Source: JAWOFN01 sp046497505 [NCBI: bacterium] (lineage in GTDB: Bacteria > Blakebacterota > Blakebacteria > Blakebacterales). From it: a stretch of DNA of 42,009 nucleotides. The notes below the pieces were generated by a model. The model had not been told where the DNA came from. It was given only the letters and a program-made list of their open reading frames with translations, and searched no databases. Location: NCBI GenBank assembly GCA_046497505.1, contig JAWOFN010000124.1:1-42009 (forward strand), given 5' to 3'. The first letter of the stretch is position 1. Each line of letters begins with the position of its first letter. The translations under genes were made by a program, and so were the position numbers. Below, piece after piece: positions 19,856-41,001 of the stretch.

Positions 19856-19878
19856 GTTTATTCACTCCCGGGGGTCCG

Positions 19879-19902: not shown

Positions 19903-19914
19903 TGGCGCCGGTGC

Positions 19915-23785: not shown

Positions 23786-25695
23786 CAGAACGCGTGGAGC
23801 ACGGTGAAGTGGAACTGGCCCGGGGGAAGGCTGAATCCCGGCGTCGCACGTTCGGTGGGCGACTTGTTCAACCGCCAGCCGTAGTTGACCCGGAAGGGCC
23901 CGATCGGAGTGTCAAGGAAGATGCCGACACCGGCGGTCAGCGCCAGGTCGAATCCCACGTCCCCCGTCCGCGCCCAGACGTTGCCGGCGTCCACGAACAC
24001 CATGCTCCCCACCGGCCCCAGGATGCCGGGCCGCCGCATCTCGGCGTTCAGCAGGAGGAGCGCCCTCCCGCCGCGCGCCTGGAAACTGGTGCGTCCGGTC
24101 GTGGTGTCCACCGAGGTGGTCACCGGCCCCAACCTCCGCTCCGAGTACCCACGCACCGAGTTGGCCCCGCCTGCGAAGAAGCGGTCGAAGATCAGCACTT
24201 CGTCCGTCCCTCCATACGGCTGGGCCAGACCTGCCCGGACGCGGGTGGCCAGCACGGTGCTCGACCCCGTCAGCTGATAGCGTGACCAGGTCGCGCTCAT
24301 GATGGCGTAGCTGGGGCCGCCCAGCACCTTGCCGCCGTATCCCCGGACCATCGCCTGGGTATAGCTCCCGCTCACCGGGCTGAAGAAGTTGTCCCGGCTG
24401 TCCCGTTCCGCCCAGAGCGACCCGCCCCGCAGAGCGTCCCGGCTGGAGAACGCCTCGACCGGCACTTCGGTGTCGACGAGCCGGTAGGTGAAGTCGAGCC
24501 GCCCCCGTGAGCGCGGCGTGAACTCCCTGCTCAGCCCTATCTCGGCGGTGATCTCCTGCACGTTGTAGATCCCGTAGGACTGGGGTCTGAGGGCGAGGGT
24601 GAGCGTGCCCGGCATCCGGGTCCCGAGCAGCCACGGCTCGACATACCGCATGCTCAGCTCTCTCCGCACCAGTTCCCAGGCCGTGACGACCTGGAAGTCG
24701 GCACTGGCCCGCAGTTCCAGCACGCGGCCGGTACCGAAGAGGTTTCGATGCCCCCAGTCGCTGGAGGTATGCAGGTTCAGGTCGAGCTGTTCCCGGTCGT
24801 CTCCCGCCACACCGGCGCCGAAGCCGAAATAATGGAGGGGGCGCTCCCTGACCGTCACGAGGACGTTCACGCTCGTGGTGTCCTCGTTCACCCCGCCCAC
24901 AGTGACGTTCGCAGTCCGGAATATCCCGGTGCCGTAGAGGCGCCGCTGACTCTCCCTGCGCTGGGTCTCTTTGAGGAGGTCCCCCGGATCGAGCGTGACC
25001 TCCCGGGTGATCACGAAGTCCTTGCTGTGACGGGCCCCTTCCACCGTGACATCGGTCACGCGGACCTGGTTCCCCTCCCGGACCCGATAGGTCACCGGTG
25101 CCGCACCGCTGGTCGTATCCCGCTGCCCGATCCGGGGGCTCACCTCGACGAAGTAGTACCCCTCCTCCAGGTAGAGCTGCCGTATCCGTTCGGCGCCGGC
25201 CTGCAGGGCCGATTCGCTGATCGGGGCTCCCTGGCGGAGCCGGTACCCGCGAAGCCCGGAGAGGAGCCCCCTCAGTGCTTCGTCCCCGAAGACCTCGTTC
25301 CCTTCGAATCGCAGCTCCGAGAGGGTGTAGCGCGGGCCTTCCCGGATCGTATAGTGGACCACCAGCCGTTCCTCACCCAGCGGCTCCACACGGTCCTCCA
25401 CGCTGCACTGGAGGTATCCCCGGTTCCGGTAGAAGGCACGGAGTATGGTGGTGTCACGCCCCATGACCAGGTAGTTGAAGGTCGGTCGACCCTTCCCGAG
25501 GAACTGGAGGATGTTCCGGTTCTCGACCCGGGTCACATCAGCGAGCCGCTCAGCCGGGAAGGCCTCGTTCCCGTGGAAGACCACATCCTCCACCTTCCGC
25601 TGGCCATACGCCTCCCCGGACCCTGCCGCTACGCCGAGCAGGGCGATGAACGCCGCGAGAAGACCGTATCTCGGATTCAGTATTCGATGCGCCAT
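23785..25695 (-). CDS. tamA: Omp85-family outer-membrane protein, TamA-like
   Basis: 636 residues. A signal peptide (about 1-30, LLAAFIALLGVAAGSGEAYG) is followed by about three POTRA-type repeats up to residue 310 (VEDVVFHGNEAFPAERL, LSELRFEGNEVFGDEAL, RVTDVTVEGARHSKDFV). A 16-strand-type barrel follows, with the Omp85 signature FAGGANSVRGYSERRLGP and a terminal Phe (VLHAF). BamA also belongs to Omp85, but it usually has five POTRA domains and about 800 residues; the adjacent tamB makes TamA the better call. ATG 25695 lies 19 nt inside tamB. The protein is predicted to act with TamB in outer-membrane protein or lipid handling. Confidence 0.85.
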   Translation of the reverse strand: MAHRILNPRYGLLAAFIALLGVAAGSGEAYGQRKVEDVVFHGNEAFPAERLADVTRVENRNILQFLGKGRPTFNYLVMGRDTTILRAFYRNRGYLQCSVEDRVEPLGEERLVVHYTIREGPRYTLSELRFEGNEVFGDEALRGLLSGLRGYRLRQGAPISESALQAGAERIRQLYLEEGYYFVEVSPRIGQRDTTSGAAPVTYRVREGNQVRVTDVTVEGARHSKDFVITREVTLDPGDLLKETQRRESQRRLYGTGIFRTANVTVGGVNEDTTSVNVLVTVRERPLHYFGFGAGVAGDDREQLDLNLHTSSDWGHRNLFGTGRVLELRASADFQVVTAWELVRRELSMRYVEPWLLGTRMPGTLTLALRPQSYGIYNVQEITAEIGLSREFTPRSRGRLDFTYRLVDTEVPVEAFSSRDALRGGSLWAERDSRDNFFSPVSGSYTQAMVRGYGGKVLGGPSYAIMSATWSRYQLTGSSTVLATRVRAGLAQPYGGTDEVLIFDRFFAGGANSVRGYSERRLGPVTTSVDTTTGRTSFQARGGRALLLLNAEMRRPGILGPVGSMVFVDAGNVWARTGDVGFDLALTAGVGIFLDTPIGPFRVNYGWRLNKSPTERATPGFSLPPGQFHFTVLHAF

Positions 25696-28600
25696 CTCAG
25701 CTCGAGCAGTGTGCGTCCCAGGAGGTTGTTGCGCGTGCCGCTGATGGTGAATCGTCGCGAAAGGCGGTACTCCACCGCCCACTCCCCCAGACTCGTCAGG
25801 CCGGTCTGGCCCCCCACGCTCCCCCGGAGGTAGAGCTGGTTGGTCAGGTACTTGCCCACCGTGACCTGGGTGTTCTCCCCGGTACTGCCCGCCATCCCCT
25901 CGATCTCGAACGTGTCCACCCCGAGCTGCTGACCGGCGTAGCGGTTCACCGTGCTCTCCAGGAAGTTGGTCACCGCGTTCCCCCCCTGTCCGCTGCGCTG
26001 CCCGAAGGGACTCGTACCCAGGGCCAGCAGCTCCCAGATGTCGCTCTCGCTCGTGAGCGCCTCGCTGTCGGTGGAGAGCTGCGTGATCGGTTCCCGGGCG
26101 GTCCCGGTCAGCGTCATGGTCACCCGCACGTCCTGCACGTTGGTGGTCAGCAGCACGTTCAGGTTGGGGTTGACCTCCTCGATGTTGCCGAAGGTGATCT
26201 CCCCCTCTTCCACCTTCCAGCGCCGTCCCACGAACGAGACCTCGCTCTTCCCCGGCCGCGCGTTCAGCGTGCCCAGCACATAGAGGGAGCCCATCGGTTC
26301 CTTCCTGATCAGCAGATTACCCTCGAGTTCCACGTCCACGTCCTGTCCAAGGGTCCCTCCCACCACACGCAGCCTTCCGGGCACCTCGAGGTCGGTATTC
26401 ACCTCGAAAGCGGCCCGTTCCCCCTCTTCCACGTGTCCGGCCGTCTCCGGTCCCCCGGTCAGTTCCAGGAGCAGCCCCACATCGGCGATCCCCCGCTGGA
26501 CCACGACGTCCCCAGTGAGGACGGGGTGCCCGCCGTTCACGTCACTCGCGAGGGCCAGGTCGGTATCCACCTGGAGGCTCAGGCTCGCGGTGGGGTCGCT
26601 GAGTCCCATGCCCCTCCCCGTGAGGGCCAGGTCGAACCGGGGACGCCCGTCAACGAGGCGGACCTGGCCGGTGAGCGCGAAGTCCCCCTGCGGGGGGTCC
26701 CTGGAGAACACGCCGAGCGTCACCGTGTCGAGGAGCCAGTTCACCGCCCGGGCAAGACGGCCCTGTCGTTCCACCAGCACCGCGGGTAGACGGCCCGTGA
26801 ACTCCTCCACCCGTATACGCTCCCGGTCCAGACGCAGGTCCACCTGGAGGTCCTGCGTCTCCTGCCCCAGGACCGAGGCCTTAAGGGTCCCGTCATGCAG
26901 CTGGATCCGTCCCTGGAAATCCGGTCTCTCCAGCGTCCCGTCCACCGTGACGTCCGCCTGCAGGTTCCCGCTCAGACGCTCGATCTGTTTGCTGAAGGGC
27001 TGCCGCAGGATCGAGGGATTCCCGTCCCCCTGGAAGAGTGCCGTGAATCCCGCCGTCCGGTCCACCGCGAAGGTGAAGGGTTCGAATCGGAGTGTGACCG
27101 GCACATCCGCCTGGAAGGAACCGATGAAACCCATCGCGCGGAGAGAACCGTCCTCCACCCGCAGCCGCGCCCCGTCATAGCGCACGCGCCCACGTGCTCG
27201 ATCGACCTGGAAGGTGTCCACCTGGGCACCCTGCAGGTCGAACCGCCCCTCAAGCCGCGGGTCCTGGAAGGTGCCCCGCGTGGTTACCCTGCCGGCCAGG
27301 GTCCCCTCCAGGGTCCTGCCCAGATAGGAGGCGAAGGGGCCGAGCTGGACACCGCCCAGCTCCAGGTCCATCTCCAGACGGCCGCTGGCCTCCGCGGCCT
27401 CCGCCCCCGGGAGATGGACCGTGCCGCTGATCCGGGCATATTCACCCCCCTCACCCTGCACGTCCAGCGTATCCAGGGACACGGTACCCTGGCGATATAC
27501 CCCGGCCACCAGCATGTTCTCATAGACGTGCTCATAGATGCCGGGGCCGTCCACCCGGATACGGGCGTCCATCTCCTCCACATGGGCGGCGATCCGCCCC
27601 TCCAGCTTCCCCGTGACCACACCGGTGGGCGCCCCGGGCAGGTCCAGCGAGGACCCGAACCGTCCCAGGTCCAGGGTATCCACGGAACCGCTGACGAACA
27701 GCATCCCCTCCTCGTCCCGGTATCCCGCCAGTCTCGCATTCCCTCCCGGGGTCTCTGCCGATATCTCGAAGTCCCCCGCGCCGGTGGATGGTTCCACGGC
27801 CACCTGCCCGTTCAGGCCCCTCACGTCGATCTCCCGGTGGCGGATCCTGCTCTCCAGCAGTCGTGCCCGCAGGGAATCCGCGCTCACGAGGATGTCGCCC
27901 CTCAGCGTGGCCTCCCCTTCCGTCCAGCGTCCCGTGATGGTCTGGAGTGTGATCCTATCCCCCCGGACGCGTCCTTCCAGGTTCCCTTCGGGGAGACGGA
28001 ACCGCTCACCCACGCTGAGACTGTCCAGCCTCCCCTGGAAACTCCCCACTCTTCGGCCGACCACCTCGTCCACATCCAGTCGGACCTCTGCCGAACCCGC
28101 CCGGAGTCCGTTGCGCACCAGTTCGCGGACCTGGAACAGTCCCTCCACGTCAGGATCGGTGACCTTCCCGGTGAGCCGGATGTTCAGGTCCACCTCCCCG
28201 CTGTCCGCCCGCACTCCCGCCAGACGCAGGGGCAGGCTCGGCTCGCGGGTCCCTCCCAGGACCCGCACATCCATCAGGTCCCGGTCCACATCGACCCGAC
28301 CCGAGGTGTTCAGTGCGAACCCGTGACCCCATACCTGGAGGGGCTCGCGCGTCAACAGCAGCCCGTCCCCGGCGGTCACCTTCGCCCGGAGGGAATCCGC
28401 CTCGAGATCCCAGGCGCTGGCACCCAGCACCTGCAGGGAGACCTCACCCCCGGCGTGGAGGACATCGTATCCCTGTGAGGAGAGGTCGAGTGCGACCCTC
28501 CGCAATCGGATGGGTTGTCCGAGAGGTGAGATGTCGAGCCGCAGCGAGTCGGCTCGAGCGATGAGGGTGCCGACACCGCTCTCCGGGTCCATCTCCACAC

Positions 28601-29588
28601 GGGCGAAGAGCGAGTCGGCGCCGGGGCCGCTCGCCCTGAGCACACCATCCACCCGATCCGGATGGTAGCCGCCTTCGAGCGTGAAACGCTCCATGTCCAC
28701 GCCTGCCAGCGAGCCGTACCCGCGGGCACGGAATCGCGGGCGGGTGAGCCGCCCTGTCATCCGTCCCTCGAACGCGAGCGGCCCGGACCCCGCCCACTCG
28801 CCCCCCACGATCGGCCACCATTCCCCCAGGTCCCGGATGTCGAGCCGCACCCGCAGGTCGGTGTCGGTCCCCTGCTCGAGGTCCAGCCGGCCGTTCGCCC
28901 GGACCTCGCCGTTCGCGGTGCGCAGACGGGTCCCGAGCACCCAGAGGCGGCCCCGGTGGAACACCACGGTGCCCTCCACGTCCGTGATGGCAAGACCCCA
29001 TCCCTCCAGGTCACCGTGGAGGTGGTCCACCGGGATCTCCAGCCCCCCTTCCGGTCCCATGCGGAAACCGCCCCGGAAGCGGATGTTCTCCACGACCTCG
29101 AAAAGACCGCCCTCCAGGATCTGTACCTTCCCGTCCCGCAGCACCACCCGCCCCACACTCAGCCGCGGCATCCCGCCACCGGCAGATGTGTCCGCGGCCG
29201 CCCTCGCGGCACCCTCCGTCTCGGCTGCGAGCCCGCCCCGCAGGGCGGACACCGAGAAACGCGGGCGGTCCGCCTCGACCCGCATCAGGTCGATCGATCC
29301 CCCCAGGACCGACCACGGCAGGTAGCGGACCCGCAGCAGGTCCGCCTGGAAGACCGTGTCCCCCGCCGCGGAGGTCAGGACCGGTTCACGCACCGCCAGG
29401 TTGAAGAGATAGGAACCCTTCGCATCCCGCCACCGGAGGCTCAGTCCCGCCTTCTCCAGGGCAAAGCTGTTCACCAGGGAGAGGACATACCGGCTTCCCA
29501 GGGAGGTGTTCAGGGTCACCAGGGCGGTGCCTGCCGCCACGATCCCGAGGATGAGGAGCAGGATGCCTATGAGGGCGGCTCGTCGCAT
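25677..29588 (-). CDS. tamB: Translocation and assembly module protein TamB (DUF490)
   Basis: 1303 residues, usual for TamB (E. coli 1259). One N-terminal transmembrane helix (about 5-27, ALIGILLLILGIVAAGTALV) anchors it in the inner membrane. The long middle is repetitive beta sequence with many LxxxDSLRAR and GRLDLE-type strands, as in the hydrophobic-groove beta-taco of AsmA-like proteins. The C-terminal DUF490 region covers about the last 350 residues and ends with VGKYLTNQLYLRGSVGG and NNLLGRTLLELRWRIEY. These proteins bridge the periplasm and are implicated in phospholipid transport and in assembly of some outer-membrane proteins. ATG 29588 has CAGGA upstream and a TATAAT 52 nt before it. 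First gene of tamB-tamA-maf-rodZ-priA. Confidence 0.93.
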   Translation of the reverse strand: MRRAALIGILLLILGIVAAGTALVTLNTSLGSRYVLSLVNSFALEKAGLSLRWRDAKGSYLFNLAVREPVLTSAAGDTVFQADLLRVRYLPWSVLGGSIDLMRVEADRPRFSVSALRGGLAAETEGAARAAADTSAGGGMPRLSVGRVVLRDGKVQILEGGLFEVVENIRFRGGFRMGPEGGLEIPVDHLHGDLEGWGLAITDVEGTVVFHRGRLWVLGTRLRTANGEVRANGRLDLEQGTDTDLRVRLDIRDLGEWWPIVGGEWAGSGPLAFEGRMTGRLTRPRFRARGYGSLAGVDMERFTLEGGYHPDRVDGVLRASGPGADSLFARVEMDPESGVGTLIARADSLRLDISPLGQPIRLRRVALDLSSQGYDVLHAGGEVSLQVLGASAWDLEADSLRAKVTAGDGLLLTREPLQVWGHGFALNTSGRVDVDRDLMDVRVLGGTREPSLPLRLAGVRADSGEVDLNIRLTGKVTDPDVEGLFQVRELVRNGLRAGSAEVRLDVDEVVGRRVGSFQGRLDSLSVGERFRLPEGNLEGRVRGDRITLQTITGRWTEGEATLRGDILVSADSLRARLLESRIRHREIDVRGLNGQVAVEPSTGAGDFEISAETPGGNARLAGYRDEEGMLFVSGSVDTLDLGRFGSSLDLPGAPTGVVTGKLEGRIAAHVEEMDARIRVDGPGIYEHVYENMLVAGVYRQGTVSLDTLDVQGEGGEYARISGTVHLPGAEAAEASGRLEMDLELGGVQLGPFASYLGRTLEGTLAGRVTTRGTFQDPRLEGRFDLQGAQVDTFQVDRARGRVRYDGARLRVEDGSLRAMGFIGSFQADVPVTLRFEPFTFAVDRTAGFTALFQGDGNPSILRQPFSKQIERLSGNLQADVTVDGTLERPDFQGRIQLHDGTLKASVLGQETQDLQVDLRLDRERIRVEEFTGRLPAVLVERQGRLARAVNWLLDTVTLGVFSRDPPQGDFALTGQVRLVDGRPRFDLALTGRGMGLSDPTASLSLQVDTDLALASDVNGGHPVLTGDVVVQRGIADVGLLLELTGGPETAGHVEEGERAAFEVNTDLEVPGRLRVVGGTLGQDVDVELEGNLLIRKEPMGSLYVLGTLNARPGKSEVSFVGRRWKVEEGEITFGNIEEVNPNLNVLLTTNVQDVRVTMTLTGTAREPITQLSTDSEALTSESDIWELLALGTSPFGQRSGQGGNAVTNFLESTVNRYAGQQLGVDTFEIEGMAGSTGENTQVTVGKYLTNQLYLRGSVGGQTGLTSLGEWAVEYRLSRRFTISGTRNNLLGRTLLELRWRIEY

Positions 29589-29764: not shown

Positions 29765-29798
29765 ATGCGGGTGCGGGGGAACACCCCCGCACCCGCAT
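29765..29798 (-). terminator. 15-bp perfect hairpin ending the pilus/Ig operon
   Basis: ATGCGGGTGCGGGGG (29765-29779) is perfectly complementary to 29784-29798, with a 4-nt loop. It starts 29 nt after the Ig-lipoprotein stop. The following bases, TCGTACATTG, lack a uridine run. Strength and position support a 3'-end structure for the operon. Confidence 0.75.
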
Positions 29799-29827: not shown

Positions 29828-32800
29828 TTACGGCAGGTTGAACGAGAGGGTCGCACTCACCCCGTTGGCCGTGCTCGCCTCGATGGTGATAAGCGTGCCG
29901 CTCTCGCCGTCGGGATAGGAGAGCGTGGCCTGGGCCAGCCCCGCGTCATCCGTCGCGGCGCTCCCCGTGATCAGAGCCGATGTGCCGCCGGCCGTGATGG
30001 TGAAGTAGAGGAGCGTGCCCTCCAGCACCGCGTTGTTGGCCGCGTCGGAGACCAGGGCGCTGATGGGCAGGCTCGTGACGCCGTTGGCACTCGTGGCGTC
30101 CGTCGGGTCGTAGGTGAGCAGGATCTGAGCCGGCGGGCCCGCGGTCACGTTGATCAAGCCGGCTACGCTCTGGGCCCCGCTCGCTACCGCCGTGGCGGTG
30201 AACGTCATCGTGCCCGACGTGCTGCCGCTCTGGTACTCGAAGCTGACCTGCCCGTTGCCGTCGGTCAGCTTGGTGATGTCCGCCTGCCCGTTCGAGAAGG
30301 TCCCGTCGGGCGAGACAGCCAGGTTGACCTCGGTACCGGCCGGCATCGGGTTGTTGTTGGCGTCCCACACCGTGACCGTGATGATCGAGCGTTCGGTGCC
30401 GCCGGTCCCGAGGACCTGCAGCTCGGTCTCGCTCGCCTCCATACCGAGCGTGGTGCTGGTCGTCCCCAGGAGGGTCACAGTCGTGGAGACCGGCGAGAGA
30501 CCACCGTAAACGGCGCTCACTGAGGCCGCGCCGGCAGTGCTCGGCGAAGTGAAGGTGGAGATGGCCTTGCCCGAGGCATCGGTGGTGCCCGAACCGCTCA
30601 CGGTCCCCACATCCGTCGCGAAGCTGACGGTCCTGCCGTCCAGGGCCACGTTCGCCGTGGTCTCCTTCAGGGTGGCCGTTATGGTCGAGGTCGCGGACCC
30701 GTTGGCACTGATGCTGTCGGGCGAGGCCTCCACGCTCAGCGTCACGCCGCGGAGCCCGATGACCACCGAGTCGGAGAGGCTAAGGAAGGAGACGTTCACG
30801 GTCTCGGTCTCGTCCGCCGTGTTGGCGTCGGCGGTGAAGACGTTGGCCGCCTCCCCATCCTGGTCGGTGCCCACCGCTGCGGAGGCGAGCGTCCCGTTGG
30901 CACCGGACAGGCTGAATCCGATCCCCGACTGGGCCACAGGCGTCCCGAAAGCGTCGGCCAGGGTGGCCGTCAGAGCCGTGGAGTCCACCCCGTCCCGCAG
31001 GATGCTCGAGGAATCGGAGACCAGTGTGAGCGAACCCAGTGGCACGGCCAGGGTGCTCGTGACGCCCTGGTTGGTGGCCGAGTAGGTCACCGCCAGGACC
31101 TCGTAGCCCCTCGCGTAGGTGAAGAAGGTCTGGGCCACGCCCTTCTCGTCGGTTGTGCTGTTGGCGATGATACCGCCCACCGTGTCCGGGGAGGCCGTCC
31201 ACAGGACGTTGGCGTCCGGTATCGAGTTGCCGTACGTATCGCTCAGCACCGCGTGGAGTTCCCGCTCGTACTGGCCGGTGTCCTGACTGAAGACGATCTC
31301 CACCCCGCTCACGTCGATGTTGGCGGTGGGACCCGCCGAGACGGTGAGCAGCGATTGACTCGCAGTGATGCCCGTTCCAACGGCCTCGGCTGTAACGGTC
31401 ACGTCCGTGGCCACCGTGCCGCTCTGGAACTGCACCTTGGCCTCACCGTTGTCGTCGGTCTCGACCCGTACCGAGTCGGCGGTCCCGTTGAAGAGACCGG
31501 CGGTCCCACCGGCGGGGCTCATCTCGAAGTCCACCAGTACACCCGGAGGCACCGGCTTGTTGTCGCCGTCCAGGAGGGTCGCGGTGATGGTGGCGGTCTC
31601 GGTGCCGCCTGTTCCCTTGACCTGCAGGTCCGTGGTGGAGGTGCTCAGGCCGATGGACGCGGTGGTCGGCGCCTCGAGCGTCACCTGCGTGGTAGCGGTG
31701 ATGCTGCCTCCCGCCACACCGTTGGTCGCCGTCACCGTGGCCGTGCCGGCCGTCAGGCCGGAGGTCAGGGTGGCGGAAGCCTTGCCGTCACTGTCCGTGC
31801 TGACCGAGCCGGTGATGGTGCCCAGGTCGGTGCTGAAGACAATGGTCTCGTCCGAGACGCCCACCTTGGCGGTCGTCTCTACCAGCTGGACCGTGATCTC
31901 GCTGGTGGCCACGCCGTTCGCGCTGATCCGGGTCGGGATCGTCTCGGTGACGTCCAGGGTCAGGCCCACCAGGTCCACGTCCTGCGTGTCGGTGCTGCCG
32001 TTCACGTCGGCCGTGACCGTCGCGGTGGCATCCGCGCTCCCGTCGTCACCGGTGAGCGTCACCGAGGCCTGCCCGGCGTTGTCGGTGGTGGAGGTGGTCT
32101 TATCCAGGCTCCCTGTGCTGGTGCTCCAGTTCACCGTGGCGTTCGGCACCACCTTGCCCGCGTTGTCGGTGACCTCGACGGTCAGGGTCGTGGCATCCTC
32201 CCCGTTCCGCAGGATCCGGGTCGTCGCCCCGGAGGTGAACTCAGGGATAAGGGTCTGCGGCAGGATGTAGACCGCGACGCTGTCCCCCAGCGTCGTGGAC
32301 GGGTCGCTGCCCAGGCGGGCCTTGACACTGGCGTCCACTGCCGCGGTGGTGTCCGCGGTCAGGGTGGCGGTGGCCACACCGCGGTCGTTGGTGATGGCCT
32401 GGGCATCGATGGTGGCGAAGTCGCCCGGCGCGAACGAGAAGTTCACGATCCGCCCCTCGAGCGGCACGTTCGTCTCCGCCTCCTTCACGGTCACTTCGAT
32501 CAGGCTCTCTTCCATCCCGTCCGCCACCAGGGTGTCAGGAGTGGCCTTGATGGAGAACCGCACCCCGTAGAGGGGGATGACCACGTTCTCGGAGACCGTG
32601 CTCACCGTCGCGGTCACGGTCGCGCTGGAGACGGTCGTCGCCACGTCCGCCCGCAGCTTGGTCGTGGCCACGCCGTCCTCGTTCGTCTCGGCATACGGTT
32701 CGAGCAGCTCCCCGTCGCCGGTGAGGCCGAACTGCACCAGCTGGCCGTCGATCGCCTGGTTGAAGCGGTTGCGTACCTCGGCCCGGATCGTGGTCTCGTC

Positions 32801-34936
32801 CTGCCCGTCACGCAGCAGGCTGCCCTCATCGGCGCTGAGGCGGATGCTGATCTGGTCCTGCAGCAGGTGGATGGTCTCGGTATCGGTGATGACCCCGCCG
32901 CCCATGGCCGCCTGCATGACCAGGTCGCCGGCGTTGGAGCTGGTGAAGCTGAAGCTGGCCGTGCCGTCGTCCGAGGTGCTGGTCGGCACGTCGTTGAGGA
33001 TCACGCTGGGCCCGGAGACCTTCGAGATGGCGATGGGGTGGTTGCCCACCTGGATACCGCTGGAGGTCTCGGTGGCCCGGAAGGTCATGGTCCCGCTCTG
33101 CTCGCCGTTGGCGAGGAGGGTGTCCGGGCTCACGTCCGAGGTGATGGTGATCCCCTTGAAGAGCATGTCCAGGGTCCGGGTGCTGTCCCCCACCGCGGCC
33201 GTCACCGTGGCGGTCTGGTCCGCGGTGCCGGCGTCGGCCTTCAGGGTCGCGGTGTGCTGACCGTTGGTGTTCGTCGAGCCGCTCGTGGGAGAGATGCTGC
33301 CGGCCGTGGTGCTCCAGGTCACCGGGAGGCTGGAGACCTTCTTGCCCGCCGGGTCCTGCACGCTGATGGTCAGATCGACATCGTCGGCGCCGTCCCGGAG
33401 GATCCCCGTGGTCGTCGCCGCTTCGAGGGCGATGGTGAGGTCCTTGGGCAGCATCTCCACGGTCGTGGTGGTCGAGTTCGGCCCCACGGTCGCCGTGATC
33501 GTTGCCGTTCCGGGATTCGTATCCGCTGCGAGTGTGACAGTAGCTTCACCGCTGCTGTTCGTCGTCGCCGTGAGGGGGATGGAACCGAGGGTGGTGGTGA
33601 ACTGCACACTGACGCCGCCGACCCCTGTGTTGGTTGAAGCAGTCTTCACTAAGACACTGATCTGGGAGGTGTTCGAGTCGTCGGCGAGGATCTGGTTCGG
33701 GCTGGCGGTCATCGTCAGCTGAAGATCCTGGATGTTCACGGTCGTGCTGGTCGTGAGGCTGCTGAAGGTGGCGGTGACCGTCGCCGTGCCCGAGGCCTGG
33801 CCGGCACGCAGCCGGGCCGCTGCCTCACCGTTCGTGTCCGTCCGGCCGTTGTCCACCAGGGTCAGGACCGCGTCGGAGACCCCCGCGAGGCTGAAGTCCA
33901 CCTGGGCGTCCTCCACCGGGGTCCCGTTGGGACCCAGCAGGCGCGCGGTGATCTGGGTCGTGCTGCTCCCATCGGCGGGCAGGACCGTCTCGGCCGCCGA
34001 GAGGGTGAGGTCCGGCTGGTCGTAGGGGATGGCCGTCTGCGCCTCGATCCCCGGGACCAGCATGGCGTAGACGGTGTCCGCCGGCGAGGTGGTCAGCACC
34101 GAGGTGAAGGTGGCCGAGGCGATGCCGAACTGGTTGGTGTTCGAGGCGGGGGTGATCTTCCCCTCGATGGCCGACCAGTCGATCTGGCGGCCCGTGAGGT
34201 TCTGGCCCCGGGTCACGGTACGGACACGGGCCTCCACCGCAGTGGAGGAGGTACCGTCCGCGACCACGCTCGTCTTATCGGTGGAGAGGGTGATCTGGAT
34301 CCCCTCGAAGATCACGGTCAGCTGGTCGGCCTCGGCCTCGTCGGAGCCGGCGGCCTGACCCCTCTCCTGTGCACGCGGCTCGCCCAGGATGGAGGAGGCA
34401 CCCCGCTCGCGGGAGCGTGCGTTCTCCCGTGCACGGTCCACCAGGATGGCGTGCAGCCGGGCATCCATCTCCTCTTCGGTCATCGGGCCGACCGAGACCA
34501 GGGCCACCGACTCCTCGGGAGCCGGCTGGACCTGGGTCTGGCTGTTCGTCCTCGGGTTCAGGATGTAGCCGCTGGTGTCATAGACCGTGGCGTCTACCTG
34601 GGCCGTGATGTCCGTGGTGCTGATCACGCTCATCAGCGTGGTGCTGGCCTCACCGCTGGCGTTGGTGATCACGCGGTCCTGCGTGAGGGTCCCCGCCGTG
34701 GTCGTGAACTCGATGACCACGTTCTCGACACGCTCGCCATCATAGGTGATGGCTGTGACCTGGATGTCCAGCTCCGACTCCCCGTCCGCCGGGAGGTACT
34801 GGGTGGCGTTGGACCAGTCGTTGAATGGCCGGATGTCGATCGGCTCTTCATCCGTCACCGAATCACATGCGGTGAGGATGGCCGCGGCGGCTACGACGAA
34901 CAGCCCTATACGTACGAGGGGATGGAAGCGACGCAT
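29828..34936 (-). CDS. Giant Ig-like (Big_1-type) repeat lipoprotein in the pilus locus
   Basis: 1702 residues. The signal peptide has an AAAAILTAC lipobox, so Cys24 is probably lipidated. About 16 tandem beta domains of 90-105 residues follow, each with the invasin/intimin Big_1 pattern: ADG or RDG with (T/S)xIT near the start, VxFxTxxG in the middle, TDxxGxAxxTL, then TATVTA. Domain 1 (about 47-122) is separated from the rest by a charged helical segment at 150-205 (EEEMDARLHAILVDRAR). The last eight domains form two copies of a four-domain block. No catalytic domain or cell-wall anchor is seen. It begins 54 nt after pilQ with a GGAGGAGAGGG ribosome site, so it is probably co-transcribed. 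An adhesive or scaffold role is inferred from domain type only. Confidence 0.88.
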   Translation of the reverse strand: MRRFHPLVRIGLFVVAAAAILTACDSVTDEEPIDIRPFNDWSNATQYLPADGESELDIQVTAITYDGERVENVVIEFTTTAGTLTQDRVITNASGEASTTLMSVISTTDITAQVDATVYDTSGYILNPRTNSQTQVQPAPEESVALVSVGPMTEEEMDARLHAILVDRARENARSRERGASSILGEPRAQERGQAAGSDEAEADQLTVIFEGIQITLSTDKTSVVADGTSSTAVEARVRTVTRGQNLTGRQIDWSAIEGKITPASNTNQFGIASATFTSVLTTSPADTVYAMLVPGIEAQTAIPYDQPDLTLSAAETVLPADGSSTTQITARLLGPNGTPVEDAQVDFSLAGVSDAVLTLVDNGRTDTNGEAAARLRAGQASGTATVTATFSSLTTSTTVNIQDLQLTMTASPNQILADDSNTSQISVLVKTASTNTGVGGVSVQFTTTLGSIPLTATTNSSGEATVTLAADTNPGTATITATVGPNSTTTTVEMLPKDLTIALEAATTTGILRDGADDVDLTISVQDPAGKKVSSLPVTWSTTAGSISPTSGSTNTNGQHTATLKADAGTADQTATVTAAVGDSTRTLDMLFKGITITSDVSPDTLLANGEQSGTMTFRATETSSGIQVGNHPIAISKVSGPSVILNDVPTSTSDDGTASFSFTSSNAGDLVMQAAMGGGVITDTETIHLLQDQISIRLSADEGSLLRDGQDETTIRAEVRNRFNQAIDGQLVQFGLTGDGELLEPYAETNEDGVATTKLRADVATTVSSATVTATVSTVSENVVIPLYGVRFSIKATPDTLVADGMEESLIEVTVKEAETNVPLEGRIVNFSFAPGDFATIDAQAITNDRGVATATLTADTTAAVDASVKARLGSDPSTTLGDSVAVYILPQTLIPEFTSGATTRILRNGEDATTLTVEVTDNAGKVVPNATVNWSTSTGSLDKTTSTTDNAGQASVTLTGDDGSADATATVTADVNGSTDTQDVDLVGLTLDVTETIPTRISANGVATSEITVQLVETTAKVGVSDETIVFSTDLGTITGSVSTDSDGKASATLTSGLTAGTATVTATNGVAGGSITATTQVTLEAPTTASIGLSTSTTDLQVKGTGGTETATITATLLDGDNKPVPPGVLVDFEMSPAGGTAGLFNGTADSVRVETDDNGEAKVQFQSGTVATDVTVTAEAVGTGITASQSLLTVSAGPTANIDVSGVEIVFSQDTGQYERELHAVLSDTYGNSIPDANVLWTASPDTVGGIIANSTTDEKGVAQTFFTYARGYEVLAVTYSATNQGVTSTLAVPLGSLTLVSDSSSILRDGVDSTALTATLADAFGTPVAQSGIGFSLSGANGTLASAAVGTDQDGEAANVFTADANTADETETVNVSFLSLSDSVVIGLRGVTLSVEASPDSISANGSATSTITATLKETTANVALDGRTVSFATDVGTVSGSGTTDASGKAISTFTSPSTAGAASVSAVYGGLSPVSTTVTLLGTTSTTLGMEASETELQVLGTGGTERSIITVTVWDANNNPMPAGTEVNLAVSPDGTFSNGQADITKLTDGNGQVSFEYQSGSTSGTMTFTATAVASGAQSVAGLINVTAGPPAQILLTYDPTDATSANGVTSLPISALVSDAANNAVLEGTLLYFTITAGGTSALITGSAATDDAGLAQATLSYPDGESGTLITIEASTANGVSATLSFNLP
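29831..31036 (-). repeat. Four-domain Ig block, copy 2 (residues 1301-1702)
   Basis: Carries in order ILRDGVDSTALT, ISANGSATSTIT, LQVLGTGGTERSIIT and AGPPAQI. Each landmark is 398-405 residues after its counterpart in the upstream copy, so the block was copied as a unit of about 1.2 kb and then diverged. Confidence 0.75.
31037..32254 (-). repeat. Four-domain Ig block, copy 1 (residues 895-1300)
   Basis: Carries ILRNGEDATTLT (about 908), ISANGVATSEIT (about 1004), LQVKGTGGTETATIT (about 1104) and AGPTANI (about 1201), in the same order and spacing as copy 2. The preceding domains alternate LRDG and ANG/ADG types (512, 607, 707, 803), which suggests an older two-domain unit. Confidence 0.75.
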
Positions 34937-34990
34937 GATCCCTCTCCTCCAGACGATACGGTGTGCCGGATGACGGGCGACGAATCCCGC

Positions 34991-36304
34991 CTACGGCCGG
35001 TTGACTCTCGTGTCGCGCTCGATGCGGGGAGTGACGAAGAGGATCAGGTCCCGCACCTGCGTCTCGGTCCTGCGGTAGCGGAAGGCCGCTCCCAGGATGG
35101 GGATGTCCATCAGGATGGGCACCCCCGTGTCTGCCGTGGTCACGGTCTCGGACTTCAGGCCGCCGATCACGGCGGTCTCACCGTCACGCACCTCGACGGT
35201 GGTCTGGGACTCCTGCGTGGTGATGATGATGCCCGCGCTCGGGTCCACCCGGAAAGATTCCCGCTTGGGCTGCAGCTCCAGGATGATGCGGTCGCCCTGT
35301 ACCACGTGGGGGGTGACGATCAGCTCGGTACCGACCTGCTGGAGCTGGATGGTCACGTTCCCCGCCACGTCCAGTTGGCGCAGGGGTATCTGCTCCCCCA
35401 TGAACACCCTGCCCTCCTGGTTGTCCAGCACGCTGATGCTGGGGGTCGCCACCAGGTTGGCGGTGCCCTGGGTCTCCAGGGCCGAGATGGTACCGTCCAG
35501 GCTCATCGTGCCGCTGGCGAAGGCCAGCTGGCCCCGGATGGCGTCGGAGGCTCCCAGGTTGGTGCTCTGGGTGATGACCAGCGGGTTGCCTCCCACCTCC
35601 ACGTTCAGGTCCCATTCCAGCCCCAGTTCCCGCAGCTTGTCGTTGTCCACTTCAAGCAGTTTCGCCTCGATGCGGATCTGCGGGACGGTGATATCCACGT
35701 TCTGGATGACCTGCTGGATCAGGTCGATGTTCTCCGGATAGTCCCGGACGATGAGACTGTTGGTCCGGGTGTCGATGTTCAGCACGCCGTCGGTGCTCGC
35801 GAGCGGCTGAACGGCGGTCTGGATCTCCTGGGCCCGGCTGTTTTCGAGCCGGATGATCCGGGTCACCAGCGGCTGGGAGGTCTCGATGTCCCGCTGCTGC
35901 TGGAGCTGCTGCTGCTGCCGGGTGTTGTATGCGGATCGGGTCAGGAGCAGCGCGAACTCGGTGCCGGCGGGCAGGCCGTCGCGGATCACCTCGACACTGG
36001 GTATGCTCACCAGGTCCTGCTGGGCCATCACCGCGGCCAGAGCGTCCGCCCAGTGGACCTCCCGGAGCGAGAGGGTGACCGTCCCCGTGACCCCCGAATC
36101 GGTGACGATGTTGATGTCCCCCCATTCGGCGATGAAGTCAACCGCCGACTTGACCGCGGCGTTCTCGAGCTTGACCACGGGGATGACATCCCCGGCGGCC
36201 GCCCTCTGCTGAGCGAGCGCCTCGGAGGGCGCCGCCGTCATCAGCAGCGCCGCGAGGACCAGGATGCTCCGCTGTGTGCTTCCCACGGTTCTCACCTCGC
36301 TCAC
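34991..36304 (-). CDS. pilQ: Type IV pilus secretin PilQ, short form without AMIN domain
   Basis: Outer-membrane pore through which the pilus exits. Only 437 residues, whereas PilQ is often 600-900. A signal peptide (about 1-32, LVLAALLMTAAPSEALAQ) leads into an N0/STN domain (43-97, VKLENAAVKSAVDFIAEWGDI), a Gln-rich linker (QQQQLQQQ, about 130-137), an N1 domain (145-205, ENSRAQEIQTAVQPLAS) and the secretin core (about 285-430, VGTELIVTPHVV, GETAVIGGLKSE, GVPILMDIPILGAAFR). No AMIN domain precedes N0; that domain is on the neighbouring gene. GTG 36304 overlaps the upstream stop as GTGA. The pilMNOP context supports PilQ over a type II secretion GspD. Confidence 0.93.
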   Translation of the reverse strand: MSEVRTVGSTQRSILVLAALLMTAAPSEALAQQRAAAGDVIPVVKLENAAVKSAVDFIAEWGDINIVTDSGVTGTVTLSLREVHWADALAAVMAQQDLVSIPSVEVIRDGLPAGTEFALLLTRSAYNTRQQQQLQQQRDIETSQPLVTRIIRLENSRAQEIQTAVQPLASTDGVLNIDTRTNSLIVRDYPENIDLIQQVIQNVDITVPQIRIEAKLLEVDNDKLRELGLEWDLNVEVGGNPLVITQSTNLGASDAIRGQLAFASGTMSLDGTISALETQGTANLVATPSISVLDNQEGRVFMGEQIPLRQLDVAGNVTIQLQQVGTELIVTPHVVQGDRIILELQPKRESFRVDPSAGIIITTQESQTTVEVRDGETAVIGGLKSETVTTADTGVPILMDIPILGAAFRYRRTETQVRDLILFVTPRIERDTRVNRP

Positions 36305-37206
36305 GGCACCGGGAGGCGCACCTCGATGCGCCGCCCGTACTTGTCCAGGGTGAACACCACCTCGGTCGCGGTGATCCGGGTCAGGTACCCGAACCGCACG
36401 CGGTCCCCCACCTTGAGTCGGTAGGTCAGCCCCTGGGCGTCCCGGAACAGTGCCGTGCTCTGCCCCGGGTCGTCCTCACGGTAGACGACCCCGGTGAGGG
36501 TGAGCGCCTCCGCGTTGGGCAGGGGACGCTCGAGTACGTTCGTCATGTCCGCTTCCGAGGGCTTCAGGAGCGGATCGAAGGGGTTCTCGCGCAGTCCCCG
36601 TTGATACCTCGCCCCGGGGGGCTGGTCCACCTGCTCCCGCTGCTCTCCGGATGCTGCGGCGGCCTGCTCCGCCGGCCGTTCCCGGGGGACGCCGACCTCC
36701 GCCGCCGGAGGCCGGGTCCTTCCCGTACCCCGGAACTCCGGGCTCCCCGGTGCGAACCGCACATCCAGGCTGCTCCCGCTCCACGCCGCCTCGGCGCTCT
36801 TCGAACCGGCCACGTCGATCTCGATCCGTGCGATGTGTCCGTCCCGGTCCAGGAACTGGCTGGCACGGACCGCCTGCACGTCCGGGGTCTCCAGGGCCCC
36901 CACGTTCTGGCCCCGGTAAGGTGTGTAGGTGTCCCGCAGGTCCACGACGAAGGTGCTCCCGCTCACCCAGTAGGAGACGTACTCCCGGGGCTCGTCCACC
37001 CGGATACGGAGGGCGAAGGTCCCGGGATCGGATCCCGGATAGAGCTCCACCGCCGTGACCTCCGCGGTCCCCTGCGGGATGCGCCGGGAGGCGGCGTCCT
37101 CCTGGGCAGAGACACGCCCCGCCCCGAGGACGAGCACGGCGCCCGCCAGGAGCGCCGAGCGCAGGGCCCTGCTGTCTGCCAGCTTCCTAGTTCTCGCGTA
37201 CCACAT
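36301..37206 (-). CDS. pilP: AMIN-domain and PilP-like fusion protein
   Basis: 301 residues with an unusual order. A signal peptide (about 1-35, ALLAGAVLVLGAGRVSAQ) has no lipobox Cys, although PilP is normally a lipoprotein. Residues 47-152 look like an AMIN domain (VTAVELYPGSDPGTFALRIRV, STFVVDLRDTYTPY, IARIEIDVAG), the peptidoglycan-binding module usually found at the PilQ N-terminus. A Pro/Glu/Gln-rich linker (153-205) leads to a PilP-type beta domain (207-300, NPFDPLLKP, LTLTGVVYRED, YRLKVGDRVRFGYLTRITATEVVF). ATG 37206 overlaps pilO by 20 nt. It should join the PilMNO platform to the secretin and may fix it to the cell wall. The AMIN assignment is by eye. Confidence 0.85.
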   Translation of the reverse strand: MWYARTRKLADSRALRSALLAGAVLVLGAGRVSAQEDAASRRIPQGTAEVTAVELYPGSDPGTFALRIRVDEPREYVSYWVSGSTFVVDLRDTYTPYRGQNVGALETPDVQAVRASQFLDRDGHIARIEIDVAGSKSAEAAWSGSSLDVRFAPGSPEFRGTGRTRPPAAEVGVPRERPAEQAAAASGEQREQVDQPPGARYQRGLRENPFDPLLKPSEADMTNVLERPLPNAEALTLTGVVYREDDPGQSTALFRDAQGLTYRLKVGDRVRFGYLTRITATEVVFTLDKYGRRIEVRLPVP

Positions 37207-37762
37207 AGGTCGTCACCGTGCACCGGATGATCACTTCACCCTCCTGGGGCGATGGTCCCGCCCCTCCGCCTTCGGCCGCTGAGGGGTGCAGCAGCTGGAT
37301 ACGCTGCACGCTCATCCGCCGGGGCTGGCTGGCCAGGTCCTCGATGAACCGGCCCAGCTCGTGATACTCCCCCACCATGTCCAGCTGGTAGTCCTGCTCG
37401 ATGTAGAGCGAACGGGTCCTGGACTCCCCCTTGTTCACGCTCCGGATGAACACCCCGGAGGACTGCTCCGAGACGCTCATGGCGGAGAGGACCTCCTCCT
37501 CCCTGGGTTCGGCGGGGAAGGAGATCAGGGTCTGCTGCCAGAGCGCCTGGGCATCCGCCAGCTGGCTCTCCACCTCGGGGAGCTGGTCGACTTTGGTCTG
37601 CAGGGTCCGGATCTCTCCCTGGAGACTTCCGGTCTGCTGCTCGAGCTGTGCGATCTCCTCGCCCCGGGGGGAGTAGATGTAGGTGAACCACCCGTACAGA
37701 CCGCCCAGGACACCCAGGACAGCGAGCAGGATGATCTGCGTCCTCTGGTCGCTCAGGTCCAC
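37187..37762 (-). CDS. pilO: Type IV pilus inner-membrane protein PilO
   Basis: 191 residues. A short cytoplasmic start is followed by one transmembrane helix (about 10-28, ILLAVLGVLGGLYGWFTYIY), a coiled coil (33-75, EEIAQLEQQTGSLQGEIRTLQTKV) and a ferredoxin-like periplasmic domain with SVNKGESRTRS, LDMVGEYHELGRFIEDLA and VQRIQLL. It pairs with PilN through the coiled coils and ties PilM to PilP. GTG 37762 lies 4 nt after the pilN stop. Confidence 0.93.
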   Translation of the reverse strand: MDLSDQRTQIILLAVLGVLGGLYGWFTYIYSPRGEEIAQLEQQTGSLQGEIRTLQTKVDQLPEVESQLADAQALWQQTLISFPAEPREEEVLSAMSVSEQSSGVFIRSVNKGESRTRSLYIEQDYQLDMVGEYHELGRFIEDLASQPRRMSVQRIQLLHPSAAEGGGAGPSPQEGEVIIRCTVTTYVVREN

Positions 37763-37766: not shown

Positions 37767-38357
37767 TCACCCCGGGATGTTCATGACGGCCGTTATGGAG
37801 AACTCGAACACGTCCCTGCCTTCCACCCTTACCGGCCTCAGGAAGTTGGTGGATACCCGCTGGATCAGGTCCTGGGCCTGGAGCCGGCCGATGAGTTCGG
37901 CCAGTCCCTCCTTCCGCAGGGTCCTTCCAATCATGTTCAGCACCCGCTCCGCCGGCACCGCGGCCTGCCCCCGCTGCCCCTGCGGGGGGCTCTGGTTCAG
38001 GTTCACCACCCACACGTTCTCCGGCACCTGGGTACTGATGATCTCCAGCACGCTGAGCTGCACCTGGTTGCGCTTCCCCAGTTCCTGGAGCGTGGTGATG
38101 CGCTCCTCCAGGTCCTGGATCTGCCGTCGGAAGTTATCCACCTTCTGAGCCTGCGGCTCCAGGAGCGTCTTCTGGTTCTGGAGCGTCTCGACCTCGGTCT
38201 GCAGCTCGCCCAGCCGCTGTGCCTGGTTGATCGTCAGCCACCCGATGAGGGCCGCCGCCGCCGCCCCCCCCAGCACACCCAGGACCCGGGCGTCGAGCCG
38301 GACCTTGAATCCCTTCTTGCGATACTTCTCCGGGAGCAGGTTGATCTCGAATACCAT
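37767..38357 (-). CDS. pilN: Type IV pilus inner-membrane protein PilN
   Basis: 196 residues. The cytoplasmic N-terminus VFEINLLPEKYRKK contains the INLLP motif that docks into PilM. One transmembrane helix (about 25-45, VLGVLGGAAAAALIGWLTI) is followed by a long coiled coil (48-95) and a periplasmic domain (VWVVNLNQ, GLAELIGRLQ, VFEFSITAVM). ATG 38357 forms TGATG with pilM, with GAGGTGGG just upstream; a TTG one codon earlier is less likely. Confidence 0.94.
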   Translation of the reverse strand: MVFEINLLPEKYRKKGFKVRLDARVLGVLGGAAAAALIGWLTINQAQRLGELQTEVETLQNQKTLLEPQAQKVDNFRRQIQDLEERITTLQELGKRNQVQLSVLEIISTQVPENVWVVNLNQSPPQGQRGQAAVPAERVLNMIGRTLRKEGLAELIGRLQAQDLIQRVSTNFLRPVRVEGRDVFEFSITAVMNIPG

Positions 38358-39409
38358 CAACCCACCTCCCTCAGCGCCAGCCCCACCGCGACCATCAGCA
38401 TGGGCGCGATCTCCTCCGGGTCACCTTCGGGGAAGAGCGCGGTGTCGAACTCGATCTTCCGGAGGGGGTTGGCCACCTCGGCAGGGATGTTGTTCTTCGT
38501 CTCCAGCAGGTTCGTGAGGCCCGGTATGGAGGCCCCGCCCCCGCAGAGCATGATCACGTCCAGATCGTCCAGGTCCACCGTGGAACGGAAATAGCTGATG
38601 GCCATCTCGATGGAATCGCTCAGCTCCGCCCCCACATCGGCGATGACGTCGGCGGCCCGGTTGATCTCCAGCTCCTCCGGCGGCCGTCCCTGCAGCAGGT
38701 CGAGGGCGGCGTCCTCCGGGAGGTTCAGCTCCTTCTGCAGCCGCTCGCTGAAGTGGCTCGTACTGATGGAGAGGTCGCGGGCCGAGTGGAACTGACCGTC
38801 GTATACGAAGGTCACCGACGTGGTGTTGGCGCCGATGTTCATCAGCGCCGCCCCCTTGTAGTCGGCCATGTCGTAGTTGGCCTCGAAGGCGTTGTACAGG
38901 GCGAAGATGTCCACGTCTACGATGGCGGGCTTCACACCCAGCCCGTGGAGCAGTTCCAGACGGCTCTCCAGCACGTCGTTCTTCGCCGCCACCAGGAGGA
39001 CACGCATTATGTCCTCCTCCTCGACCACGTCCATCACCTTGTAGTCGAGCGTGACCTCGGAGATGGAGAAGGGGCTGATCTTCTCGACCTCCGAGTAGAC
39101 CTCGTTCTGGGCCTCCTCCTCGGTCATGACCTGCATGGTGAGGGTGTCGTGCAGTACCGCGAAGCCGGAGAGGCTGATGACCACGTTCGCCCGCTTCAGG
39201 CCGTTCCGCTTGATGACCGTCTTCAACGCCTCGGCCACCAGGTCCCGTTCCCGGATCTCCCCCGAGACGATCGCTCCGGGCGGCATCGGTTCGATGTCGA
39301 AATCGACGAGCTCGTAGCCCCCCGACCCGTGCTGGATCCGGACCACCTTGACCGAGGAGGACCCGATGTCGAGCCCCACGGTGGCTTTGCCCCGCTTCAG
39401 CAGTGCCAT
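38357..39409 (-). CDS. pilM: Type IV pilus assembly ATP-binding protein PilM
   Basis: 350 residues, actin/FtsA-like fold. Phosphate-1 loop TVGLDIGSSSVKVVRI at 10-25; second nucleotide motif MNIGANTTSVTFVYDG; adenosine motif MLCGGGASIPGL. It binds the PilN N-terminal peptide at the cytoplasmic face and links the alignment complex to the pilus motors. It heads a tight pilM-N-O-P-Q run and is preceded by a near-consensus promoter, so the operon starts here. No pilB, pilT, pilC or pilD is in the window. Confidence 0.96.
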   Translation of the reverse strand: MALLKRGKATVGLDIGSSSVKVVRIQHGSGGYELVDFDIEPMPPGAIVSGEIRERDLVAEALKTVIKRNGLKRANVVISLSGFAVLHDTLTMQVMTEEEAQNEVYSEVEKISPFSISEVTLDYKVMDVVEEEDIMRVLLVAAKNDVLESRLELLHGLGVKPAIVDVDIFALYNAFEANYDMADYKGAALMNIGANTTSVTFVYDGQFHSARDLSISTSHFSERLQKELNLPEDAALDLLQGRPPEELEINRAADVIADVGAELSDSIEMAISYFRSTVDLDDLDVIMLCGGGASIPGLTNLLETKNNIPAEVANPLRKIEFDTALFPEGDPEEIAPMLMVAVGLALREVG

Positions 39410-40978: not shown

Positions 40979-41001
40979 GCTCGATGCGCCTCCTTGGAGG
41001 A

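What the first reader, a model, noticed from the sequence alone, without database searches (positions are those of the whole stretch)
29828..34936. Giant Ig-repeat lipoprotein attached to the pilus alignment operon
A 1702-residue lipoprotein with about 16 Big_1-like domains follows pilQ by 54 nt on the same strand, with a strong ribosome site and a perfect 15-bp hairpin after its stop. No other promoter is visible between them. I know of no described pilus subsystem with such a subunit. It could be a surface fibre, a secretin-associated sleeve or an adhesin exported with the pilus.
Basis: partly seen in the sequence, partly recalled or inferred. Interest (0 to 1): 0.7.

Follow-up and report, generated by a model that had tools for sequence, protein, structure and literature searches.

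The report
Ig-repeat lipoprotein behind the pilus secretin
A giant, lipid-anchored chain of immunoglobulin-like domains is encoded directly behind the outer-membrane gate of a bacterial type IV pilus, and relatives or look-alikes sit in the same place in at least two bacterial phyla, which suggests a dedicated surface stalk that works with, or is exported through, the pilus gate.

Summary
ORF 29828-34936 (-) is a 1702-aa lipoprotein (its only Cys is the lipobox Cys24) with 16 Pfam Big_1 stretches, 54 nt behind pilQ, with a strong ribosome site and a perfect 15-bp hairpin (no T-run) after its stop.

In the phylum of a Zixibacteria genome, 109 of 132 genomes hold the family. It lies behind a secretin gene in 80 of the 97 genomes that can be decided, elsewhere in 17. 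In one clade it stands between a secretin and pilB-pilC, with tamB further on, close to the window's order (10 of 10 follow the secretin). In Gemmatimonadota, 17 of 35 fetched secretin loci carry a lipoprotein in that slot, 15 with an Ig-like Pfam match but little or no similarity to the window family.

Best reading: a pilus-operon stalk of intimin/invasin fold, most likely surface-displayed with help of the secretin, as InvL and PulA are by the type II system; the neighbouring AsmA-like TamB may shield the lipid (inferred). My literature searches showed no such pilus component. New variant of a known kind; surface export is untested.

The parts
29828..34936 (-). Ig-repeat lipoprotein, 1702 aa
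   Evidence: ORF and translation; Big_1 x16, Invasin_D3 x11
34865..34936 (-). signal peptide and lipobox LTAC (Cys24, the only Cys; Asp at the next position)
   Evidence: translation
34322..34522 (-). charged, Ala/Glu/Arg-rich insert, aa 139-205, near the N terminus
   Evidence: translation
31118..31822 (-). first copy of the conserved core, aa 1039-1273
   Evidence: 90 bits against the Zixibacteria-family profile, positions 217-453
29861..30589 (-). second copy of the conserved core, aa 1450-1692, near the C terminus
   Evidence: 64 bits against the same profile, positions 224-474; 100-aa windows of the two regions are 41-49% identical in the best pairs
34940..34950 (-). ribosome binding site GGAGGAGAGGG
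   Evidence: sequence
29765..29798 (-). perfect 15-bp hairpin after the stop codon, no T-run
34991..36304 (-). pilQ, short secretin (437 aa)
   Evidence: Secretin, Secretin_N
36301..37206 (-). PilP-like gene (weak)
   Evidence: PilP E 0.038, below cut-off; position between pilO and pilQ
37187..37762 (-). pilO
   Evidence: PilO E 2e-16
37767..38360 (-). pilN
   Evidence: PilN E 1e-7
38357..39409 (-). pilM
   Evidence: PilM_2 E 6e-59
39508..39536 (-). promoter-like site before pilM (TTGACA-17-TATTGT)
   Evidence: 10 of 12 consensus matches; weak
39578..41005 (-). PilX-like minor pilin
   Evidence: PilX_N E 3e-6, DUF4900 E 6e-10
25677..29588 (-). tamB (AsmA-like), next gene downstream
   Evidence: TamB E 9e-37
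23785..25782 (-). Omp85 protein with 3 POTRA stretches (TamA/BamA-like)
   Evidence: Omp85 E 1e-41, POTRA x3

Best explanation
The gene encodes a dedicated accessory lipoprotein of the type IV pilus (or pilus-like) secretin machine. A lipid anchor is followed by a variable number of intimin/invasin-type Ig domains (16 or so here, fewer in relatives) and a more conserved core that lies near the far end in the window protein. Most likely it is displayed on the cell surface beside PilQ after export through, or with the help of, the secretin, and acts as an adhesive or anchoring stalk for the pilus port. This is how InvL and PulA reach the surface through the type II secretin with the AsmA-like protein GspN; here the neighbouring TamB would be the candidate for the GspN role. 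Shown: gene order, conservation, lipobox, predicted Ig fold. Inferred: surface location, secretin dependence, TamB's role, adhesion.
For: Family A1 in 109 of 132 genomes of the phylum of G001 (E<=1e-20). By coordinates (from; same strand, match edges under 700 nt apart): 72 behind the best PilQ, 1 (G083) behind a second PilQ piece, 7 (clade B) behind another secretin, 17 elsewhere, 12 undecidable. Clade B: 10 of 10 homologues follow a secretin (7, 3); in the 7 read with their neighbours, pilB-, pilC- and tamB-like genes follow, and in 6 of 7 the start of a gene that looks like omp85 (by eye; Pfam names checked on L147 only, up to tamB). Window core: 90 and 64 bits against the Zixibacteria profile; secretin-linked clade B homologues 74-85 bits at the same place; conversely the clade B profile meets the Zixibacteria proteins in its own core, mostly at positions about 419-634; best of 249 Gemmatimonadota genomes 46 bits. 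In six large Zixibacteria assemblies the pilQ-linked gene is the only frame with a Big_1 match at E<=0.001 (3) or one of two (3), so its place behind pilQ is not chance, though the genomes are related and not independent. Gemmatimonadota: 17 of 35 secretin loci are followed by a lipoprotein, 15 with an Ig-like Pfam match. Fold: homologue model pLDDT 85, best solved matches intimin Z 14.8 and invasin Z 13.2, also FdeC Z 11.8. Precedent: InvL, a barrel-less intimin/invasin-family lipoprotein, needs GspD (PMC9245377, passages) and the AsmA-like GspN (PMC12802150).
Against: 17 genomes hold the gene away from pilQ; neighbours were read for 16 of them and no pilus gene was recognised, several stand near clpB (by eye). 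15 genomes of the phylum with a good PilQ match have no A1 match at 1e-20; four of these (G013 in fragments, G122, G123, G125) match the clade B profile instead. G118 has a further copy away from a secretin (L145). 18 of 35 Gemmatimonadota secretin loci (some may be type II loci) and 9 of 9 PilQ loci of the UBP2 phylum lack it. TamB lies next to or near it only in the window and clade B. The sorting-motif test is weak: Asp after Cys in 10 of 45 family members against 0 of 20 other lipoprotein-like ORFs (p 0.025); a G/S/N/D-rich tail in 28 of 45 against 6 of 20 (p 0.03; several of the 20 are doubtful); the window tail CDSVTDEE itself misses my 4-of-7 cut. Nothing shows surface exposure.
Confidence: 0.5

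Rival explanations
1. Periplasmic brace: the lipoprotein stays on the inner face of the outer membrane and its Ig chain clamps the short secretin or ties it to the wall or to PilN/O/P, as TsaP, GspB or the archaellum FlaF/FlaG do (those names and roles recalled).
For: Constant place behind pilQ; length 696-723 aa in 26 of the 29 Zixibacteria members; a core somewhat more conserved than the ends; window PilQ is short and shows no AMIN match; Ser after Cys in 13 of 29 Zixibacteria members, which in E. coli rules would favour the outer membrane (recalled).
Against: Length runs from 571 to 1702 aa in the family and from 150 to 1297 aa in Gemmatimonadota look-alikes that end in a stop codon; about 16 extended Ig domains would be some 65 nm (about 4 nm each, recalled), longer than a periplasm is wide; the fold matches adhesin stalks.
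Confidence: 0.28
2. An ordinary surface adhesin that uses a general lipoprotein route and merely rides at the end of the pilus operon, co-expressed but with no contact to the pilus.
For: 17 genomes keep a copy elsewhere, whole in 16; different Ig families fill the same slot in Gemmatimonadota; many secretin loci lack it.
Against: 80 of 97 decidable genomes keep it behind a secretin, next to two very different secretins (about 26% identity) and between secretin and pilB in clade B.
Confidence: 0.17
3. A bacterial alpha-2-macroglobulin-like protease trap.
For: Foldseek ranks macroglobulin and complement chains high; weak Pfam MG4 hits in Gemmatimonadota look-alikes.
Against: TM-scores to them are 0.21 or less; no CxEQ thioester motif, only one Cys; VIA-align puts intimin and invasin first.
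Confidence: 0.02

Closest known systems
InvL of Acinetobacter baumannii (PMC9245377, passages read) and other type II-exported lipoproteins, PulA (PMC12802150: abstract, passages, sections 7 and 13 and part 1 of section 10 read)
   Same: Lipobox, intimin/invasin-type Ig domains (InvL), no beta-barrel; a secretin machine; an AsmA-like protein (GspN there, TamB next door here).
   Different: Here the gene sits in a type IV pilus operon behind pilQ, is long, has no lectin cap that I could see, and export is untested; TamB is not GspN.
Intimin/invasin/FdeC inverse autotransporters
   Same: Ig fold; among the homologue's best solved matches.
   Different: Lipid anchor instead of an N-terminal beta-barrel.
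TcpF, secreted by the toxin-coregulated pilus (PMC9565799, abstract start in listing)
   Same: A non-pilin encoded in a type IV pilus operon and exported in a pilus-dependent way.
   Different: Type IVb pilus; TcpF is described there as a secreted protein; I ran no sequence comparison with it.
LigA/LigB of Leptospira (recalled)
   Same: Lipoproteins made of many Ig-like repeats on the surface.
   Different: Big_2 rather than Big_1 repeats and no pilus link (recalled, not tested).

Membership tests
Accessory component of a type IV pilus / type II-like secretin machine | Conserved gene position with secretin and pilus assembly genes | tested here: met
   72+1+7 of 97 decidable genomes; window order pilX-M-N-O-x-Q-Ig
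Accessory component of a type IV pilus / type II-like secretin machine | Needed for pilus assembly, function or export | not testable with these tools
   needs deletion and localisation in a cultured relative
InvL-type secretin-exported intimin/invasin lipoproteins | N-terminal lipobox | tested here: met
   LTAC, only Cys at 24
InvL-type secretin-exported intimin/invasin lipoproteins | Intimin/invasin Ig domains without a beta-barrel | tested here: met
   Pfam Big_1 and Invasin_D3, no barrel family; strings of beta-strand domains in both models, of a homologue and of window aa 1030-1702
InvL-type secretin-exported intimin/invasin lipoproteins | C-terminal lectin-like cap | tested here: inconclusive
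   none seen in Pfam or in the fold listings, but the C-terminal domain was not searched alone
InvL-type secretin-exported intimin/invasin lipoproteins | G/S- or N/D-rich sorting motif after Cys | tested here: inconclusive
   family weakly enriched; the window protein has Asp next to Cys but misses the 4-of-7 cut
InvL-type secretin-exported intimin/invasin lipoproteins | Surface display needs the secretin and an AsmA-like partner | not testable with these tools
   tamB is the next gene; function not shown
Intimin/invasin inverse autotransporters | N-terminal outer-membrane beta-barrel | tested here: not met
   lipobox and Ig stretches from the N terminus on, no barrel match in Pfam
Bacterial alpha-2-macroglobulin | CxEQ thioester | tested here: not met
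   no CxEQ, a single Cys

The most novel reading that the evidence does not exclude
Type IV pilus secretins in several phyla carry a fixed accessory slot behind pilQ that is filled by an Ig-repeat surface lipoprotein, exported by the pilus machine itself with a TamB/AsmA-like protein shielding the lipid: a lipoprotein-display branch of type IV pili parallel to the type II GspN route.
Probability: 0.28. Interest if true: 0.8.

Novelty: new variant of a known kind. Interest (0 to 1): 0.62.

Why it matters
If right, it adds an accessory component to the pilus machinery of phyla known largely from metagenomes, explains why large Ig lipoproteins recur behind pilQ, and turns an open question (how large lipoproteins cross the outer membrane) into a test on one operon that holds secretin, substrate and an AsmA-like candidate carrier together. 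The type II precedent dates from 2022 and 2025 (PMC9245377, PMC12802150); a pilus version did not turn up in my searches.

Tried and rejected
Chance or artefact: rejected (same place in 80 of 97 decidable genomes). Independent transcription unit: not excluded; only the sigma-70 scan was run. Inverse autotransporter and alpha-2-macroglobulin: rejected as above.

UBP2 phylum: 9 of 10 genomes have a PilQ; in none of the 9 loci is the next gene Ig-like by eye, and none has a same-strand frame of 550 aa or more within 500 nt. Profile A3 in the phylum of G005: 0 of 145 at E<=1e-8, which proves little without a positive control. A1 in Gemmatimonadota: 13 of 249 at E<=1e-8, all stretches of 46 bits or less; only 4 candidates were scored per genome. 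Sequence search of PDB: window protein nothing at 1e-3; A1 profile intimin at 4e-6 and phage tail proteins at 5e-4 and 1.5e-3. The window C-terminal model (pLDDT 77, residues 1-61 poor) matched many Ig-like strings without a clear winner. BLAST self-comparison printed nothing and was replaced. The PilQ tree puts the window outside the Zixibacteria rows, but on a long branch that meets other long branches; the window's phylum stays unknown (DnaE 54% at best among 10 genomes).

Slips: /data/P0001.fa also held P0002, so the residue composition and the last windows include PilQ letters; the single Cys24 and the quoted repeat pairs are not affected. One search did not find the secretin in L180, L183, L187 and L188; with a profile did.

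Full report
What is there. The ORF at 29828-34936 (-) is exactly as described: 1702 aa, a signal peptide ending in LTAC, Asp next, and no other Cys. Pfam finds 16 Big_1 and 11 Invasin_D3 stretches. It starts 54 nt after pilQ with GGAGGAGAGGG before its ATG, and a perfect 15-bp hairpin lies at 29765-29798, without the T-run of an intrinsic terminator. Upstream on the same strand are pilM, pilN, pilO, a weakly PilP-like gene and pilQ, with a PilX-like pilin before them. Downstream come tamB and an Omp85 gene with three POTRA stretches. A sigma-70-like site lies before pilM and none between pilQ and the Ig gene, which fits but does not prove one transcript.

A scan for PilQ relatives gave a Zixibacteria genome (L001) whose pilQ is followed after 130 nt by a 716-aa Big_1 lipoprotein. 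In the phylum of that genome 128 of 132 genomes have a match to PilQ at E<=0.001. I fetched 51 of these PilQ loci; with L001, 29 of 52 have a homologous lipoprotein of 696-1018 aa as the next large same-strand gene, similar to each other throughout. A profile of those 29 (A1) found the family in 109 of 132 genomes at E<=1e-20. Comparing coordinates (same strand, match edges under 700 nt apart): 72 lie behind the best PilQ; G083 lies behind a second PilQ piece (rows); 7 clade B copies lie behind another secretin; 17 lie elsewhere; 12 cannot be decided because the gene or its upstream side is cut, fragmentary or masked. That is 80 of 97. These genomes are kin, so they are not independent trials. 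In six large Zixibacteria assemblies (G032, G034, G041, G047, G058, G095) the pilQ-linked gene is the only frame with a Big_1 match at E<=0.001 (G034, G047, G095) or one of two (G032, G041, G058) in the genome.

A clade with nearly the window's gene order. Clade B genomes (G117-G125, G128) hold the family at a second, very different secretin (about 26% identical to the window's PilQ; tree). The order, read in 7 loci mostly by eye, is: a gene in the place of the window's PilX-like gene, pilM, pilN, pilO, a small gene, secretin, Ig lipoprotein, pilB, pilC, in some a further gene, a tamB-like gene and, in 6 of 7, the start of an omp85-like gene. On L147 Pfam confirms secretin, Big_1, T2SSE, T2SSF and TamB, gives the small gene a sub-threshold T2SSC match, and finds nothing for the PilX-place gene. 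Three more (L193-L195) also have the Ig lipoprotein directly behind the secretin, so 10 of 10. The window shows the same string without pilB-pilC. So the same kind of protein follows two distinct secretins. In clade B genomes the other secretin, the one close to the window's PilQ, is followed by what looks like an acyl-CoA synthetase gene in L089, L090, L108 and L110, the kind of gene that follows the Ig gene in L001 (Pfam) and, by eye, in most Zixibacteria loci read.

Is it the same family? Against the Zixibacteria profile the window protein scores 192.6 bits, with the two best stretches (aa 1039-1273, 90 bits; aa 1450-1692, 64 bits) on the same profile region. Secretin-linked clade B homologues hit that region at 74-85 bits, and a second G118 copy at 93; the clade B profile A3 in turn meets Zixibacteria members in its own core. 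Gemmatimonadota reach 46 bits at most in 249 genomes (four candidates scored per genome). The core thus looks homologous and is duplicated near the C terminus of the window protein, while the repeats before it are generic and vary in number. I read this as stalk and head; that is inference. In the Zixibacteria alignment the middle is somewhat more conserved than the ends.

Gemmatimonadota. Among 298 genomes 49 have a match to the window's PilQ at E<=1e-30. I fetched 35 of these 49 loci (18, mostly from the top of the ranking, and 17). In 17 of 35 the next same-strand gene is a lipoprotein by its start; 15 of these match an Ig-like Pfam family at E<=0.01, some below the curated cut-off: Big_1 in L175-L182, Big_7 in L185-L188, L198, L199, L207. 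L183 and L212 are lipoproteins without a clear Ig match; several of the 17 are cut by the end of the contig or stretch. In the other 18 the next gene is, by eye, pilB/gspE in 10, aroC in 6, and neither in 2; some of these may be type II rather than pilus loci, which I did not sort out. Of the first 18 loci only L180, L182 and L181 match the Zixibacteria profile, at 43, 29 and 24 bits (the later 17 were not tested). The slot is shared; the filler may be unrelated by descent.

Fold. The L001 homologue is predicted as a string of beta-strand domains (pLDDT 85, pTM 0.47); among solved structures intimin (Z 14.8, one domain, rmsd 1.8) and invasin (Z 13.2) rank high, with galactosidase Ig domains and FdeC (Z 11.8) close behind. 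The window's aa 1030-1702 give the same kind of string at lower confidence. A fold shows no function.

How it most likely works. Two papers supply the model. InvL of A. baumannii is an intimin/invasin-family adhesin without a barrel; it needs the type II secretin for surface display (PMC9245377, passages). GspN, an AsmA-like protein, is needed for surface transport of such lipoproteins and, as PulN, of PulA, with a G/S- or N/D-rich motif after the Cys in A. baumannii (PMC12802150, abstract, passages and sections). The window puts a secretin, an invasin-type lipoprotein and an AsmA-like TamB side by side. So I propose surface display with help of PilQ, with TamB as possible lipid carrier. Shown: order, conservation, lipobox, predicted fold. 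Not shown: location, export, partner, adhesion. The sorting-motif control is weak (10 of 45 against 0 of 20 for Asp; 28 of 45 against 6 of 20 for G/S/N/D; several of the 20 are doubtful lipoproteins). TamB is near it only in the window and clade B. A protein encoded in a type IV pilus operon and secreted in a pilus-dependent way has a precedent in TcpF (PMC9565799, title and abstract start).

Against it. The gene lies away from pilQ in 17 genomes, whole in 16 (G107 in pieces), so the operon place is not essential; 15 genomes of the Zixibacteria phylum with a good PilQ lack an A1 match, of which four match the clade B profile; many Gemmatimonadota loci and all 9 UBP2 loci do without it. A periplasmic brace fits the near-constant 700-aa length in Zixibacteria; a long surface stalk fits the 1702-aa window protein better.

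Novelty. Six searches for pilus, PilQ, secretin and Ig, lipoprotein or host-phylum terms listed no paper whose title or abstract start describes it; the listed papers were not opened, and most papers of subscription journals are not held. I rate it a new variant of a known kind: an intimin/invasin-type lipoprotein is known; one as a conserved neighbour of a pilus secretin appears not to be described.

Noticed in passing
window 25677-29588 and 23785-25782 (-): tamB and a 3-POTRA Omp85 gene follow the Ig gene; a tamB-like gene, and in 6 of 7 loci the start of an omp85-like gene, follow the clade B pilus genes too.
   Followed up: partly
window 36301-37206 (-): 301-aa protein between pilO and pilQ, only a sub-threshold PilP match (E 0.038); its counterpart in L001 (506 aa) has no Pfam match at E up to 5.
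   Followed up: partly
L089, L090, L108, L110: In four clade B genomes (G123, G121, G124, G122) the PilQ closest to the window's is followed directly by an acyl-CoA synthetase-like gene, while the Ig gene of the same genomes sits behind a second, divergent secretin.
   Followed up: partly
L186, L187, L198, L207: Gemmatimonadota secretin neighbours are 1216-1297-aa lipoproteins with Big_7 matches and long parts without a Pfam match; an aroC-like gene follows in L186.
   Followed up: partly
L129, L131, L132, L134, L135, L137: In genomes where the Ig gene is away from the pilus operon it often stands near a clpB-like gene (by eye).
   Followed up: no
window 34322-34522: Charged Ala/Glu/Arg-rich segment (aa 139-205) interrupts the Ig string near the membrane anchor.
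   Followed up: no
window 19729-22377 and 18136-19194 (+): Open frames of 882 and 352 aa without a Pfam match.
   Followed up: no
window 2170-9550: glnE, glnD and glutamine synthetase genes lie together.
   Followed up: no
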